Below are positions 34,203-40,953 of a DNA stretch of 64,000 nucleotides, piece by piece. The stretch comes from Nocardia takedensis NBRC 100417 (GTDB lineage: Bacteria > Actinomycetota > Actinomycetes > Mycobacteriales > Mycobacteriaceae). Position 1 is the first letter of the stretch. The number at the start of each line of letters is the position of its first letter. The DNA lies in the NCBI RefSeq assembly GCF_000308695.1, contig NZ_BAGG01000009.1:1-64000 (forward strand). The letters run 5' to 3'. A model generated the notes under the pieces. The model was not told where the DNA came from, searched no databases, and saw only the letters and a program-made list of their open reading frames with translations. Made by a program: the position numbers and the translations under genes.

Positions 34203-34757
34203 GTGTACGAGGACGACATCGCGTCGGTGCTGATCACCCGGGAACAGATCGCCGCCAAGACCGAGGAACTGGCGAAGATCATCGCCGAACGCTATCCGGT
34301 CGGCGCCCCGGAAGGGGATCTGCTGCTGGTCGGCGTGCTCAAGGGCGCGATCTTCTTCATGACCGATCTCGCCAAAGCGCTGCCCATCCCCACCCAGATG
34401 GAATTCATGGCCGTGTCCTCCTACGGTTCGTCCACCTCGTCCTCGGGCGTGGTGCGGATCATGAAGGATCTGGACAAGGACATCGCGGGACGCAACGTCC
34501 TGATCGTCGAGGACATCATCGATTCGGGGCTCACCCTGTCCTGGTTGATGCGCAACCTGTCGACCCGCAACCCGGCCTCCCTCGAGGTGGTGACGTTGCT
34601 CCGCAAACCGGACGCGCTGCGCACCCCGGTCGAGGTCGCCCACGTCGGCTTCGACATCCCCAACGAGTTCGTGGTCGGGTACGGCTTGGACTTCGCCGAG
34701 CGCTACCGCGACCTGCCCTACATCGGGACGCTGAACCCGAAGGTCTACGGCGGCTGA
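34203..34757 (+). CDS. hpt: Hypoxanthine phosphoribosyltransferase
   Basis: A 184-residue PRTase. The PRPP loop is '[17 protein letters not shown]', with '[15 protein letters not shown]' and the flexible loop '[13 protein letters not shown]', all typical of HPRT. It salvages hypoxanthine and guanine. The GTG at 34203 gives the usual length with AAGGA about 11 bases upstream. A GTG at 34140 overlapping the tilS stop (GTGA) would add 21 residues and is an alternative. Its 3' end overlaps the convergent pseudokinase gene by 13 bp. Confidence 0.95.
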
Positions 34758-36865
34758 ACCCCGGCGGGCGCCTGGACGCGTTCCAGCGCCCGCAGGTCCT
34801 TCTCCATCGCCAGCGAAAGCAGGTACACGCCGACGAAGGCGATCAGGCTGCCCAGGGCCAGGACCCGCACCTCCACGATGATCTCGGTCAGGTCGGCGGG
34901 TGTGAGCAGGGTCGCGCCCGCGACGGCCGCCAGCGGGATCGATGCCGCGACGACGAGCCAGATCCCGCTGCGCCGCCGCAGTTTCCGCAGGCGGACCGCG
35001 TCCTGCCCGCCGTCTGTCGCGTCGCCGCCGATGTCACCGTGCGCGAGGAACATCGGGTACAGGCAGCGCACGACGTAGAAGTTGACCAGGAAGAACGGGT
35101 ACACCAGCGCGACCGCGCCGCAGATCGCGTGCATGGCGATGAAATGGGTGTAGTCGTAGGCCCGGATCGCGTCGGAGGTGCCGCGGATGACCAGCGGGAA
35201 CGACATCCCCGACAGCATCCAGAGGGTGAAGATCACCGCCACGGCGCGGTCGCCGAAGACGATCGCGTCGGTCCTGGCCCGGCGCAGTGTCTCCTCGGAG
35301 AAGCGTCCGCCCCTGCGCAATCCGTAGGGCACCAGGATCAGGTGCCGTCCGAAGTACGCGAGTATCACCGTGCCGAAACCGAATCCGACGAAGTTGACGA
35401 TCGCGGTGCCGATGTCGAGTCGGTGCGCGGCCTGATCGGTCAGCTTGTCGATGATCAGCATTCGGTTGTAGTCGACGTTGAAGACCGAGGCCAGCGCGTT
35501 GGGCACGGCGATGGCGAGGGTGATCAACGGAATCCGCCAGCGCCGCAACCGCCGTCGCGGACTGTGCTGCGGCGGGTCGACCAGGTCACGGGCGCGCGGG
35601 TCCAGGCACAGGTCCAGTTGCCGGGCCAGGATCGCGGCGTCGGCCCAGCGACGGTCAGGATCGTATTCCAGGCAGGTCGTCAGGACGCGCCGCAGCGCGG
35701 CCGGGCAGTCGGCGGGCAGTCGGCGCAGCGCCGCCTCGGGCGGTCCCGCGCGCCGGGTGGCGGTGTCGTCGGAGTCGGCGAAGGGCCGCGCGCCGGTGAG
35801 CAGTTCCCACAGCAGCAGTCCGAGCGAGTAGACGCTCGGGCGCTGATCGACCGCGGTGGCGGGATCTTCCGGCGCGCGGTAGGCCGGGTCGGCCGCCGCG
35901 TCGGCGATGTCGGCGATCTTCGGTTCGCCCTCGGCGGTGAACAGGACGGTGTCGGGGGTGAGCGCGCGATAGCGCACCCCGTGCCGGTCGGCGTGGTCGA
36001 CGGCGTCGGCGAGGCGTCTGCCCAGCCAGGCCACCGTCTCCGGCCAACTGAGTCGGGCGAGCTCGGCGCGCACGGGGGAGTCGGCGGGCCGGATCTCGCC
36101 GGTGCGTTCCATCGCGGCGTCGACCGAGCGCAGCAGCAGCGCGCCGCCGTCGGTCTCGGGCCCGGTGCGGACCCGGTCCAGGACGTCGCGGGCGGTGCCG
36201 CCGGGCAGGTACTGCGTGTAGACGAGCCTGCCGGACCCGGTGGGGGTCAGCAGCGGGCGGTGGTCGAAGACCCGCAGGATGTGCGGGTGGTCCAAGCGGG
36301 CGACCCGGTGCCGGTCACCGTGACCCTCGAACAGCCACACCGCGACCAGGCGCTGCATGGACCGCTGGCGCGCCAGGAAACAGCGGCCGGGCGCGACGGC
36401 GTCGAGTTCGGTGCGCAGGTCGAAATCGTCGAGGCGCTGCCCGGCCTCGAGCGCGCCGAGCGGTCGGTCCAGGGTGAGCGCGGCGGCGTCGGCCGCGAGG
36501 TCCTGCTGCTCCAGGCGTTCGCGGACGGCCGCGGCGAAATCAGGGTAGTCGGCGAGGAAATCGGTCAGCGGCAGCGGCGCTCGGTCGCGACGCGCGGCGA
36601 ACTCCTCGCAGATCAGTTCGACCAGCGCCGGGCTGTCGGCCATCTCCGGGTAGTCCGCGCGATAGGAGCCGACGGTGCGTCCCTCGCCGGGGCGTTCCCA
36701 GCGGTGCCGCAGGTCGATGCGGATCAGGTCGGTGAGGACCGCGGCACGCGCCACCCCGGCGTCGGGGACGAATTCGGCCAGTTCCGGCGGCGGTCGGTCG
36801 CCGTGCAGCGCGCGCCGCCACGCCGCGGTGAAGCGGGTGACGGCCTCGGCCCAGTGCACCGTCAC
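34745..36865 (-). CDS. Membrane pseudokinase, paralogue of the adjacent Ser/Thr kinase
   Basis: A 706-residue protein with the same plan as its upstream neighbour: an N-terminal helical domain ([13 protein letters not shown]), a kinase-like domain (near residues 145-430) and about six C-terminal membrane helices. All catalytic elements are lost: the Gly-rich loop reads '[11 protein letters not shown]', VAxK is VAVW, the HRD loop is '[15 protein letters not shown]', and DFG is 'IADIADA'. The fold-specific '[17 protein letters not shown]' is kept. The GTG start overlaps the kinase stop as GTGA, so both are made together. It is likely a scaffold or allosteric partner of the kinase. Confidence 0.85.
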
Positions 36866-39498
36866 TTCGGCGGATCCGCCGCGACGCGGTCCCGGCGGCG
36901 GTTCGGCCGCCCGTCGCGCCGTCGCTCGGACTCCTGCCCACCCGGATCGACCACCCGTTCCAGGGCGCGCAGATCCGCCTCCAGCGCGCGGAACAGCAGG
37001 TACGAGCCGACGAAGGCGATGATCGCCCCCGCGCACAGCACCCGCACGGCGACGATCACCATCGGGATATCGGTCGGCGGCAGGAAGGTCACGCCCGCGA
37101 CCGCCAGCAGCGGCACCGACGCCGCCACCGCGAGGTAGCCGTTGCAGCGCCGGTCCAGGTTGCGCAGCCACACGGCGTCCTCGGCGCTGATCTCGCCGTG
37201 CCGCAGGAAGATCGGGTAGATGCACCGCACGATGTAGAAGGTGGCCAGGAAGAACGGGTAGGAGGCCGCGATCGCGCCGCACACCAGGATCGAGGCGAGG
37301 AAGTGCACGACCGCCCGCGCGGTGATCTCGCCGGTCGCCAGTTGCAGCGCCACCGGGAAGGTCAGGCCCGCCAGCACCCACAGCACGAACGGGACCACCA
37401 CCACGCGGTCGCCCATCAGCAGCGCGTCGGATCGGGCGCGGCGCAGGGTGTCCGGGTCGTAGCGTTTGCCTTTGCGCAGGCCGCGCGGCACCGCGAGCAC
37501 GTAGCGGGACATGTAGACGATCAAGGCCAGGCCGAGCGGGAAGAACACCACGTTCACCACGCCGGTGATCACCAGGAAGATCCGTTGGGCGTCCTCGTCC
37601 ATGCGGTCGACGATCAACTGCTGGTTGTGGTTGATGTTGTAGAGCGAGGCCAGCACGTTCGGCACGCCCACCGCCAGCAGCAGCACCGGCACGATCCAGC
37701 GCCGCAGCCGCAGCCGCCAACTGCCGGGAGCCGGGTCGACCAGTTCCCGCGCCCGCGGGTCGAGGCACAGTTCCAGTTGTTTGGCCAGCGTCTCCCCGTT
37801 GGCCCAGCGGTCGTCGCGGTCGGGGGCCAGACAGGTCAGCAGGATGCGGCGCAGGGCGGCCGGGCAGTCGTCGGGGACCTGTCGCAGCGCCGCGTCCTCC
37901 ACCCCCGCGCCGCGCCGTTCGAGCATGGCCTCCAGTGTGGTGTCGTCGCCGTGGGCGTCCGCGCCCGCGGTGGAGTCGTCGAAGGGTTTCGCGCCGGTCA
38001 GCAGTTCCCACAGCACCACGCCGAGGGCGTAGATGTCGGAGCGGGTGTCCAGATCGGCGGCCCCGCGCGAGCGGCCGGGATGGCACGCCTCCAACTGTTC
38101 GGGCGACATGTAGGCCAGCGACCCGCCGAAGTAGGCGACCGGACTCGTGCCCTCCACGTTGCGGCTGAAGCTGATGTTGAAATCGGCCAGTTTCGGCACG
38201 CCCTCGGCGGTGAGCAGCACGTTCGCCGGTTTCACGTCGCGGTGCAGTACGCCGTGCGCGGAGGCGTAGTCCAGCGCCTCGGCCAACCGGCGGCCCAGCC
38301 ACGCTACCGTCTCCGGCCAGCTCAGTTCGGCGATCTCGGCGCGCACGCTGGAATCGGTGGGCCGGATCTCGCCCTTCTCCTCCATCGCCGCGTCCACCGC
38401 GTCCAGCAGCAGACGGCCGCTGCGTTCGGCGGCCGGGGTGGCGCGCACCCGGCGCAGCACCCCGAGCAGGGTGCCGCCCGGCAGGAACTGCATGTACAGC
38501 AGCCGCAACCGGCGGGCGTCACCGCGCGTCTCGTCGCCGGTGTCGAGCAGTCGCTGGTCGAAGACCCGCACGATGTAGTCGTGGTCGAGTTGGGCCAGCG
38601 TCTGCGGTTCGGTGCCGTGGTCGGCGGAGATCTTCACCGCGACCAGTCGTTGCAGCGACCGCTGCCTGGCCAGGAAGACCCGCGCGAACGCGCCGCTGCC
38701 GAGTCCGGTGAGCAGGTCGAAGTCGTCGATGCGCTGACCGATCCTGATCCGGTCGAGCGCGGCGAAACGGCCGGGGTCGTTTCCGGCCGTGGTGCCGATC
38801 TCGGTGTCGGCGCCCGGTTCGGAGCCCGTGGCGGCCGCGGTCGCGCTCAGGTCGAACGGCGCGGCGGCGGTGCCGTCCAGGTCGGCGGCAGCGGTGCCGT
38901 CCGGGTCGTGCGCGGCGGTGCCGTCGAGGTCGGGCCCCGCGCCGACGGTCGCGTCCCCGCCCGGTGACATCCGGGTGGAGTCCTCCAGGGCCGAGCGGCG
39001 GGTGCTCTGATCGATGTCGTCGGCGTTGAGCAGGTCGCGCAACTCGGCGGCCTGACCGGGATACTCGCGCAGGCAGTCGCGGGGGTCGACCCGTTCGCCG
39101 CTGTGCCTGCGGACCACGAACTCCTCGTAGACCAGGCCCGCGGGCAACGCGTCGGGCGCGAGTTCGGGAAATTCCGCGCAGTAGTCGCCGAGGCGTTTGC
39201 GGGCGGCGGCTGTGGCGCCCGCCGGACGCGGCGCGCGCAGCCAGCGGTGCCGCAGATCGACCCGGATCAGTTCGATCAGGGCCTGCTTGCGGAGGGTGTC
39301 GGCGTCGGGCAGGTAGGCGGCGATCTCGGGAAGCTCGGTGGCACCCAGGCCGGCCGCGTCGGCGCGGGCGGCGGACTCCCATGCGGCGGCGAAAGCCGTC
39401 ACGGCGTCGGCCGCCGGCGTCGAGACGGAACCGCGGCCGGCGGTTCCGCTGTCGGAAACCGTGTCCGGACCGGGATCGTTCTCGGCGTCGGCACTCAT
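36862..39498 (-). CDS. Membrane Ser/Thr protein kinase, probably active
   Basis: An 878-residue protein. An N-terminal helical domain (LIELIRVDLRHRWLRA, then FVVRRHSGERVDPRDCLREY) resembles one I know from planctomycete kinases. A low-complexity linker with DLDGTAA-like repeats follows. The kinase domain (near 265-575) has 'GLGSGAFARVFLA', 'VAVKISADHG', 'HRDVKPANVLL', 'LADFNISFS' and 'YMSPEQ'. The C terminus has about six membrane helices reminiscent of class III adenylate cyclase membrane domains, ending in a basic tail. There are no PASTA repeats, unlike PknB. The ATG at 39498 with GAGG upstream was chosen over the open frame to 39579. Confidence 0.85.
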   Translation of the reverse strand: MSADAENDPGPDTVSDSGTAGRGSVSTPAADAVTAFAAAWESAARADAAGLGATELPEIAAYLPDADTLRKQALIELIRVDLRHRWLRAPRPAGATAAARKRLGDYCAEFPELAPDALPAGLVYEEFVVRRHSGERVDPRDCLREYPGQAAELRDLLNADDIDQSTRRSALEDSTRMSPGGDATVGAGPDLDGTAAHDPDGTAAADLDGTAAAPFDLSATAAATGSEPGADTEIGTTAGNDPGRFAALDRIRIGQRIDDFDLLTGLGSGAFARVFLARQRSLQRLVAVKISADHGTEPQTLAQLDHDYIVRVFDQRLLDTGDETRGDARRLRLLYMQFLPGGTLLGVLRRVRATPAAERSGRLLLDAVDAAMEEKGEIRPTDSSVRAEIAELSWPETVAWLGRRLAEALDYASAHGVLHRDVKPANVLLTAEGVPKLADFNISFSRNVEGTSPVAYFGGSLAYMSPEQLEACHPGRSRGAADLDTRSDIYALGVVLWELLTGAKPFDDSTAGADAHGDDTTLEAMLERRGAGVEDAALRQVPDDCPAALRRILLTCLAPDRDDRWANGETLAKQLELCLDPRARELVDPAPGSWRLRLRRWIVPVLLLAVGVPNVLASLYNINHNQQLIVDRMDEDAQRIFLVITGVVNVVFFPLGLALIVYMSRYVLAVPRGLRKGKRYDPDTLRRARSDALLMGDRVVVVPFVLWVLAGLTFPVALQLATGEITARAVVHFLASILVCGAIAASYPFFLATFYIVRCIYPIFLRHGEISAEDAVWLRNLDRRCNGYLAVAASVPLLAVAGVTFLPPTDIPMVIVAVRVLCAGAIIAFVGSYLLFRALEADLRALERVVDPGGQESERRRDGRPNRRRDRVAADPPK

Positions 39499-39660: not shown

Positions 39661-40953
39661 ATGGGGGCGTATCAGCACATGTACGACACTGTGACGCGAG
39701 TGGTGGTCGATCGAGTGGCGCCGGGTCGCCGCGCCCCCGCTCTCCCACGCACCGCCGAGGACATCCTCTCGGCCGTGCACGAGGGTGCCCTGATCCCGTC
39801 GGAGCTGGTCGCGGCGGCCTTGGCCCGGATCGCGGTGGCCGACCGGGAGCTCAACGCCTTCACCGTCGTTCGCGCCGAACAGGCCGTCGCCGAGGCGCGC
39901 GCGCTGGAATGTCGCGAGGATCTGGACATGCTCGCGCTGGCCGGTGTGCCGGTCGCGGTGGAACACGCGGTCGCGAGTCCGGTGCTGGGTCGCCTGCGCG
40001 AGGCGGGCGCGGTGCTCGCCGGGACGACCTCGGGGGCGGGCGCAGGGCCGCGCGCCGACGTCGCGGAGTCGCGCACCCGCAATCCGTGGAATCCGGATCT
40101 GGCGGGCGGCGGTGCGGCGGCAGCGGTGGCGGCGGGGCTGGTTCCGCTCGCGGTCGGCGCGGACGCGTTCGGCGCGGTCCGCCTCGGCGCGGCGCGCTGC
40201 GGGGTCTTCGGCTTCTCGCCCGGCCGCCGCGGGCCGTCGGCGCGACCGGGGCCCGCCGAACACAGCGTGGTGGCGACCTCGGTGGCCGACGCGGCCTTGG
40301 CGCTGTCGGTGCTGGCCGCCCGTCCCGATCCGGTCGACGGCGATCCGCCGCGCCGACTACGCATCGGGGTGGCCGTCGATCCGCCCCACCGGCTGTTCCG
40401 GGTGGACGGGGAGTGGGCTGCCGCGGCGTGGCGGGCGGCCGCGGCGACCGAGGCCGAAGGACATCTCGTCGAGCCGGTCACGCTGCCGTACGGCGCGGGC
40501 GTCTACGAGGCCCTGCTACGCAGAGTCACCGGCCTATCCGACGGCGACCTGTCCGAGGAGCTGTCCCCCGGTCTCCTATCGCCGAGATCCGCCCGACTAC
40601 GGCACTTGGTTCGCCCCGCGCAACTCGATCGGATCGAGGCGCGACTACTGGAACTGTTCGACAGCTACGACGTCGTGATCACACCGACGCTCGCCGCCCC
40701 GCCGCCTCGCGCGCGGAACCGCGCCGCGCGGGGCAGGCTCCCCGATATTCTCTCGGCCGCTCGTTCGGCGGCCTTCACCGCGATGTGGGACCTGCTCGGC
40801 TGGCCCGCCGCCTCGATCCCGATGGGATCGCATTCCCGTTCGGCCACACCGTTGGCCGCCCAATTCGTCGGCCAGCCCGGCAGTGAGTCCACCCTGTTGC
40901 GGCTGGCCGCCCAGGTGGAGCGGCGCGAGCCGTGGCGGCGCGTCGCCGGATGA
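39661..40953 (+). CDS. Amidase-signature-fold protein lacking the catalytic triad
   Basis: A 430-residue protein clearly built on the amidase signature fold: 'RIAVADRELNAFTVV', 'GVPVAVEHAVA', 'NPWNPDLAGGGAAAAVAAGL', 'VPLAVGADAFGAVRLGAARC' and the late 'WPAASIPMG'. All three catalytic residues are changed: Lys of VAVKD is Glu, the cis-Ser of GGSSGGS is Ala, and the nucleophile Ser of GGSIR is Ala. The region between VAVE and the next helix is also shortened. It is probably non-enzymatic. It is divergent from the kinase/pseudokinase pair with 162 bp between. An ATG at 39679 is an alternative start. Confidence 0.8.
   Translation: MGAYQHMYDTVTRVVVDRVAPGRRAPALPRTAEDILSAVHEGALIPSELVAAALARIAVADRELNAFTVVRAEQAVAEARALECREDLDMLALAGVPVAVEHAVASPVLGRLREAGAVLAGTTSGAGAGPRADVAESRTRNPWNPDLAGGGAAAAVAAGLVPLAVGADAFGAVRLGAARCGVFGFSPGRRGPSARPGPAEHSVVATSVADAALALSVLAARPDPVDGDPPRRLRIGVAVDPPHRLFRVDGEWAAAAWRAAAATEAEGHLVEPVTLPYGAGVYEALLRRVTGLSDGDLSEELSPGLLSPRSARLRHLVRPAQLDRIEARLLELFDSYDVVITPTLAAPPPRARNRAARGRLPDILSAARSAAFTAMWDLLGWPAASIPMGSHSRSATPLAAQFVGQPGSESTLLRLAAQVERREPWRRVAG

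What the first reader, a model, noticed from the sequence alone, without database searches (positions are those of the whole stretch)
34745..39498. Membrane Ser/Thr kinase translationally coupled to a paralogous pseudokinase
The two genes share an unusual plan: an N-terminal helical domain, a kinase domain and about six C-terminal membrane helices. The first keeps every catalytic motif (GSGAFARV, VAVK, HRD, DFN). The second has lost all of them ([18 protein letters not shown]) but keeps the fold, and its GTG start overlaps the first gene's stop as GTGA. The N-terminal domain resembles one I know from planctomycete kinases, and the membrane part resembles class III adenylate cyclase membrane domains. 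A fixed kinase-pseudokinase membrane pair looks like an undescribed signalling unit.
Basis: partly seen in the sequence, partly recalled or inferred. Interest (0 to 1): 0.8.

Follow-up and report, generated by a model that had tools for sequence, protein, structure and literature searches.

The report
Membrane kinase paired with dead twin
In many Nocardia species a membrane-bound signalling kinase is encoded together with a catalytically disabled copy of itself that sequence comparison shows to be old and under selection, which suggests the two work as one unit, as some human receptor kinases do.

Summary
Two adjacent minus-strand genes, 51% identical over 609 aa, encode an N-terminal helical domain, a kinase domain and six predicted membrane segments. 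The first keeps VAVK, HRD and DFN. The second reads VAVW / YRA / ADI, and its GTG start overlaps the first gene's TGA. It is not a sequencing error and does not look like a pseudogene. The pseudokinases form one clade (97/100 support). In an even sample of 49 genomes of the genus, 26 carry one; 25 of these lie right behind an active kinase and one is cut by a contig start. None of the 97 other fully readable members is a pseudokinase. The 4-base overlap is kept in 37 of 40 named pairs, and dN/dS indicates purifying selection. The loss is graded: all 51 compared rows lack the beta3 lysine and an aligned glutamate, but 39 keep both catalytic aspartates and the asparagine; the window's copy is an extreme case. 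The planctomycete resemblance is supported by one kinase; the adenylate-cyclase resemblance is not supported. Most likely the pseudokinase is a membrane-embedded allosteric partner of the kinase. That step is inferred; nothing biochemical was tested.

The parts
36862..39498 (-). CDS of the active membrane Ser/Thr kinase (878 aa)
39025..39411 (-). kinase: N-terminal helical domain (about residues 30-158)
   Evidence: alignment; part of it matched to a planctomycete kinase
37732..38739 (-). kinase domain (about residues 254-589), with a short stretch between beta3 and the next conserved motif, an insert before helix E, and DFN
   Evidence: region 254-589 matched
36949..37707 (-). kinase: C-terminal membrane domain, six hydrophobic segments
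   Evidence: model
36862..36865 (-). GTGA overlap: stop of kinase and start of pseudokinase
   Evidence: conserved
34745..36865 (-). CDS of the pseudokinase (706 aa)
36482..36865 (-). pseudokinase: N-terminal helical domain (about residues 1-128)
35573..36442 (-). pseudokinase domain (about residues 142-431): Trp at the beta3 Lys position, YRA for HRD, ADI for DFG
34766..35542 (-). pseudokinase: C-terminal membrane domain, six hydrophobic segments

Best explanation
The two genes make one membrane signalling unit. The first is an active Hanks-type kinase with a six-segment membrane domain and a planctomycete-type N-terminal domain. The second is a paralogue whose kinase domain has become non-catalytic and now serves as an allosteric partner. 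The overlap lets both be made together, the shared membrane domains bring them into a hetero-oligomer, and the pseudokinase sets the activity of its partner in response to something read by the membrane or N-terminal domains. Shown here: the paralogy, one clade of pseudokinases, strict linkage in the loci read, conserved overlap, signs of purifying selection and an intact predicted fold. Inferred: catalytic silence, translational coupling, physical contact, allosteric control, and the nature of the signal.
For: One clade of pseudokinases with catalytic-motif columns left out (207 rows; 108 rows, 97/100 support and 96% of 200 bootstrap trees). In 49 genomes, 26 have a pseudokinase; 25 of 26 lie directly behind an active kinase (one of them, G026, with a broken frame) and the last is cut by a contig start; of the 102 other members read, 97 have VAVK-type Lys, HRD and DFN and none of the other five shows a substituted motif. 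Four-base overlap in 37 of 40 named kinase-pseudokinase pairs, against 0 of 11 tandem active-active pairs in Nocardia. dN/dS medians over 206 non-independent pairs: pseudokinase domain 0.258, partner kinase 0.109; membrane domain 0.183 against 0.189. Distances of the two partners correlate (r=0.65, 0 of 1000 permutations as high, 51 pairs). Model of the cytosolic part: pLDDT 89.5, M. tuberculosis PknB as nearest fold.
Against: No interaction or activity was tested. The correlation of distances is expected from shared descent alone. The kinase lives without the pseudokinase in many species, so it does not need it everywhere. In one Nocardia group the second tandem copy is itself active, so pairing does not demand a dead partner. 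39 of 51 rows keep the HRD-position Asp, the catalytic Asn and the DFG-position Asp, and five rows even read DFG, so some members may retain nucleotide binding or weak activity. dN/dS is by Nei-Gojobori in very GC-rich DNA and is only a relative measure.
Confidence: 0.6

Rival explanations
1. The pseudokinase is an inhibitor, decoy or docking substrate: it binds the kinase or its substrates and restrains or routes signalling instead of activating it.
For: The same linkage, overlap and selection. The activation loop and the stretch after beta3 have diverged. Kinases without the partner persist with intact motifs, so they may well act without it.
Against: Nothing in the sequence separates activation from inhibition.
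Confidence: 0.2
2. It is not fully dead: it binds ATP or has weak or changed catalysis, like some other kinases with Arg at the beta3 position, and the window's copy is the end of a decline.
For: 39 of 51 rows keep Asp, Asn and Asp of the active site; the beta3 residue is Arg in 50 of 51; five rows read DFG. ATP binding is modelled for an Arg-bearing family in PMC12599244 (section 7).
Against: All 51 rows lack the beta3 Lys and the aligned Glu conserved in every partner. The Phe of the partners' GAFARV loop is in none and its two Ala are in 10 and 8 of 51 rows; most of the activation-loop motif is gone. The window's copy has Trp, which could fill the pocket (inference).
Confidence: 0.15
3. A decaying duplicate on the way out.
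For: Faster change in the kinase domain than in the partner; 20 of 46 genomes with family members have no pseudokinase; in N. asiatica (L064) and G026 (L150) the reading frame is broken in its 5' part.
Against: Open frames across the genus (51 rows); dN/dS well under 1; membrane domain about as constrained as the partner's; overlap kept; one clade spread over the genus.
Confidence: 0.04

Closest known systems
Bacterial pseudokinase families ActPs1, ActPs2, ActPs3 and DYD (PMC12599244; abstract, sections 6, 7 and 12, part 1 of section 4, and passages seen)
   Same: Actinobacterial; Arg at the beta3 position in ActPs2 and DYD; membrane regions C-terminal to ActPs2; helix-C Glu missing in DYD
   Different: No HRN or DYD motif and no long activation-loop insertion; co-encoded with an active paralogue of the same build, which the sections and passages seen do not describe
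Planctomycete Hanks-type kinases (Paludisphaera borealis WP_076351742.1)
   Same: N-terminal helical domain (40% over 55 aa) and kinase domain with the same insert before helix E (38% over 254 aa)
   Different: TPR repeats at the C-terminus instead of this membrane domain; no second kinase among the five annotated features around it
MAD6 kinase of the MADS anti-phage system
   Same: Best PADLOC match of the active kinase, over its whole kinase domain, 156.3 bits
   Different: 107 bits against a curated cut-off of 460 in NCBIfam; the nine neighbouring genes scanned are housekeeping or metabolic by Pfam
Paralogous kinase-pseudokinase receptor pairs of animals, such as EGFR/HER2 with HER3 (recalled)
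   Same: A membrane pseudokinase related to its active partner
   Different: Different membrane topology; here the two genes overlap; dimerisation is untested
ChrS pseudokinase with HrrS in Corynebacterium glutamicum (PMC9491836; abstract and outline seen)
   Same: A dead membrane kinase acting through an active paralogue, with heterodimers shown by two-hybrid
   Different: Histidine kinases, and a laboratory-evolved frameshift, not a natural lineage

Membership tests
Hanks-type Ser/Thr kinase (gene 1) | Kinase domain with VAVK, HRDxxxxN and DFG-type Asp | tested here: met
   PF00069 104.5 bits against 31.7; motifs; DFN in place of DFG
Pseudokinase (gene 2) | Kinase fold kept | tested here: met
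   PF00069 33.3 bits against 31.7; model pLDDT 89.5, PknB nearest fold
Pseudokinase (gene 2) | Loss of catalytic residues | tested here: met
   Trp for beta3 Lys, Ala for HRD Asp, Thr for catalytic Asn; DFG-position Asp kept
Pseudokinase (gene 2) | No phosphotransfer | not testable with these tools
   needs purified protein
ActPs2 | HRD Asp replaced by Asn, DFG deletion in most, activation-loop extension of about 250 aa in about 90% (as stated in PMC12599244, section 7) | tested here: not met
   HRD-position residue is Asp in 41, Ala in 9 and Val in 1 of 51 rows; DFG-position Asp kept in 50 of 51; no long activation loop in the rows shown
ActPs2 | Arg for beta3 Lys | tested here: met
   50 of 51 rows of the clade, but Trp in the window
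DYD pseudokinases | DYD motif | tested here: not met
   at that place 36 DFA, 5 DFG, 4 DFT, 3 DFS, 1 DFR, 1 DIA, 1 EFS
MAD6 | NCBIfam score of at least 460 bits | tested here: not met
   107 and 76.5 bits
Class III adenylate cyclase membrane domain | Sequence or fold relationship to solved cyclase membrane domains | tested here: inconclusive
   no credible PDB sequence relative; only helical-bundle noise by fold
Planctomycete-type kinase N-terminal domain | Sequence relationship | tested here: met
   one planctomycete kinase, E=2e-5 for the single comparison; no wider survey was possible

The most novel reading that the evidence does not exclude
Nocardia evolved, once, a hetero-oligomeric membrane receptor made of an active Hanks-type kinase and a co-translated pseudokinase paralogue. 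It would be a bacterial counterpart of receptor pairs such as HER2/HER3, built from a Nocardiaceae six-segment membrane domain and a planctomycete-type kinase core, with species at every stage from the loss of the Lys-Glu pair to near-complete catalytic loss.
Probability: 0.4. Interest if true: 0.78.

Novelty: new variant of a known kind. Interest (0 to 1): 0.62.

Why it matters
[quoted passage not shown] Here the likely partner is known from the genome, both proteins are paralogues, and nature supplies single kinases, active-active tandems, mildly altered pseudokinases and strongly degenerate ones at largely syntenic loci. That makes the question of how a kinase becomes an allosteric partner directly testable in a bacterium.

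Tried and rejected
Sequencing error or frameshift in the window: rejected, because relatives of 68-72% identity are degenerate in the same motifs and the pseudokinases form one clade spread over the genus. The Trp itself, one base from an Arg codon, was seen in the window alone.

Filing under a known pseudokinase family: ActPs2 and DYD rejected on features read in PMC12599244. ActPs1 and ActPs3 were only compared loosely: no PQQ domain and no fusion to another annotated Pfam domain was found in the window's protein; their motif profiles were not searched.

Anti-phage kinase: PADLOC and NCBIfam hits to MAD6 and PD-T4-6 kinases lie in the kinase domain, and the MAD6 score is far below the NCBIfam cut-off. 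Rejected as membership.

Class III cyclase membrane domain: fold search gave mostly designed bundles, receptors and other helical proteins; absence from such a list is not proof. The PDB profile search found nothing credible. UNC-50 in Pfam at E=0.059, below cut-off, was ignored.

Wider planctomycete survey: no planctomycete genome handle could be had, so one plasmid-borne kinase is the only comparison.

Phages: 30 of 50,697 phage records hold a kinase-like match under 60% identity, none covering 80% of the query; not followed.

Link between the dead amidase next door and the pseudokinase: 18 of 18 loci with a changed amidase Lys carry a pseudokinase, but only four well-supported independent pairs exist, so it cannot be tested.

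Rows dropped before the trees: seven of 214 (partial, broken or misaligned ORFs: L064, L185, L106, L094, L182, L210, L213). The careful tree used 108 of the 207 rows, chosen by me. The named loci (L060-L139) and the numbered genomes (L146-L185) overlap as species, so their counts must not be added as independent.

Full report
What is in the window. Two minus-strand genes lie between a phosphoribosyltransferase gene that I read as hpt (PF00156) and a divergent amidase gene (PF01425). The first (36862-39498) encodes an 878-aa protein and the second (34745-36865) a 706-aa protein; they share the bases GTGA as stop and start. Over 609 residues they are 51% identical. Both score as protein kinases in Pfam, the second just above the cut-off (33.3 against 31.7 bits). 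Both carry an N-terminal helical domain and a C-terminal part with six hydrophobic segments. The active copy has DFN in place of DFG. The second copy has Trp for the beta3 Lys, YRA for HRD, Thr for the catalytic Asn, and keeps the Asp of the DFG position.

Where it occurs. A profile of the membrane domain (A1) found 80 named loci, most in Nocardia, the rest in Rhodococcus, Prescottella, Antrihabitans, Aldersonia and Skermania (best 80 of 133 kept). In 296 genomes of the phylum it matched only the three drawn from the window's genus (nine candidates scored per genome, so a weak test); in 201 of the family, 65 genomes in 13 of 31 genera (at most 13 candidates scored per genome). The window's genus is Nocardia: contigs of the numbered genomes have the lengths of named Nocardia records, for example 166328 bases for N. 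ninae. In the loci read, the membrane domain sits behind a kinase domain except where the frame could not be read.

The pseudokinase is always second in the pair. I took 49 genomes of the genus, drawn evenly (46 had a match, 130 matches), and fetched every matching place outside the window except one 38-residue match in G026. This gave 127 family members in 45 genomes (recounted). Twenty-five are pseudokinases: 23 with Arg at beta3, and two cut or frame-broken ones (G019, G026) that I assign by HHD and DFS/DFA. With the window, 26 of 49 genomes have one. Twenty-five of these 26 lie directly behind an active kinase; in G019 the contig begins inside the gene. Of the other 102 members, 97 show the beta3 Lys, HRD and DFN; L182 is cut by its contig start and shows HRD and DFN; L233 shows HRD and DFG without a readable Lys; three (L210, L213, L227) show no motif because the ORF with the membrane domain is out of frame or too short there, which I did not follow up. 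Among the 80 named loci: 40 kinase-pseudokinase, one with a partial pseudokinase, 23 single active, 11 two active, four three active, one with a broken first gene. The kinase can stand alone; a pseudokinase shown to be alone was not seen.

One origin, graded loss. With the catalytic-motif columns removed, all 51 pseudokinase rows form one side of a branch in a quick tree of 207 rows, and 29 chosen rows do so in a careful tree of 108 (97/100; 96% of 200 bootstrap trees). Fifty of 51 have Arg at beta3 and the window alone has Trp. The state Arg/Asp/Asn/Asp holds in 39 rows; the HRD Asp is kept in 41, Ala in nine including the window's, Val in one; the DFG-position Asp is kept in 50, and five rows even read DFG. 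All 51 also lack the Glu (residue 297 of the kinase) that every partner keeps; the Phe of the partners' glycine loop is gone in all and most of the activation-loop motif AYFGGSLAYM is gone. I take that Glu for the helix-C Glu; this is inference. The window's copy and its sister L160 are among the most degenerate.

Coupling and selection. The four-base overlap stands in 37 of 40 named kinase-pseudokinase pairs (mostly GTGA), in none of 11 active-active tandems of Nocardia (the locus with a broken first gene left out), and in six of seven pairs in Antrihabitans. Such overlaps are common in actinobacterial operons (recalled), so the point is its conservation, not its rarity; coupled translation itself is inferred. 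For 206 pairs of related loci the median dN/dS of the pseudokinase domain is 0.258, against 0.109 in the partner; the membrane domains are nearly equal (0.183 and 0.189), as are the N-terminal domains (0.254 over 158 pairs and 0.230). The pairs are not independent. The pattern is that of a protein that dropped catalysis but is kept.

Fold. AlphaFold2 models the N-terminal plus pseudokinase part with pLDDT 89.5, and PknB is the nearest solved fold (TM-score by target 0.76 and 0.81 for the chains at ranks 1 and 3). The membrane domain is modelled as long helices (pLDDT 82.6) with no credible match.

Ancestry. Among the 40 records listed of 585 plasmid records with a match, the best hit outside Nocardiaceae by bit score is a kinase of the planctomycete Paludisphaera borealis (139 bits). 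It shares the short region after beta3, the insert before helix E and part of the N-terminal domain, but ends in TPR repeats.

Neighbourhood. The locus is largely syntenic in the loci read: an amidase and a LysR gene on one side and hpt-tilS-dacB on the other, with a rearrangement in some Nocardia and a few loci without these genes (whose output was cut; Pfam names of the window's genes, gene names mine). In 41 of 63 kinase-pseudokinase loci (named and numbered sets together, overlapping in species) a PF04199 cyclase-family gene follows on the same strand within 200 bases, 15 to 37 bases in the 40 shown; it also follows the kinase in five single-kinase loci, two of them Aldersonia. In the window it is missing, and hpt overlaps the pseudokinase tail to tail by 13 bases.

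Mechanism. The simplest reading is a co-made hetero-oligomer in the membrane in which the pseudokinase controls its partner. The linkage, overlap, selection and shared membrane domain favour it; contact and control are inferred. An inhibitory or scaffolding role is equally allowed by sequence, and Arg-bearing members may still bind nucleotide.

Novelty. PMC12599244 (abstract, sections 6, 7 and 12, part 1 of section 4, and passages) lists bacterial pseudokinase families; those whose features I could test, ActPs2 and DYD, do not fit, and the terms 'tandem' and 'adjacent' do not occur in its text. My searches found no description of this pair in their listings; the library lacks most subscription papers and all preprints. 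PMC11032199 (passages only) describes planctomycete kinases with TPR or WD40 C-termini and does not use the word pseudokinase. PMC9491836 (abstract and outline) shows that a dead histidine kinase can act through a heterodimer with an active paralogue in another actinobacterium. I rate this a new variant of a known kind.

Noticed in passing
39661-40953 (+): The divergent neighbour is a PF01425 amidase whose Ser-cisSer-Lys triad (motifs recalled) is lost in the window. The Lys is changed in 18 of 83 loci read, all with a pseudokinase; at least five changes on the kinase tree, too few to test the link.
   Followed up: partly
L157, just downstream of the pseudokinase; not in the window: A PF04199 cyclase-family gene follows the pair in many Nocardia. 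Its metal motif reads HTGTHWGAPIH, with Gly where an Asp is usual (recalled).
   Followed up: partly
L083, L086-L089, L091-L093, L095, L099: A second, separate tandem copy that is still active occurs in the Nocardia alba/salmonicida/ignorata group; these second copies are shorter (open frames of about 650-700 aa).
   Followed up: partly
L195, L201, L212, L214, L234, L239, L242 (G045): The kinase family is expanded: one genome has nine members, seven of them unlinked to the pair, all seven with Lys and HRD.
   Followed up: no
L210, L213, L227: Unlinked family members whose membrane-domain ORF lacks readable kinase motifs: frame lesions or assembly errors.
   Followed up: no
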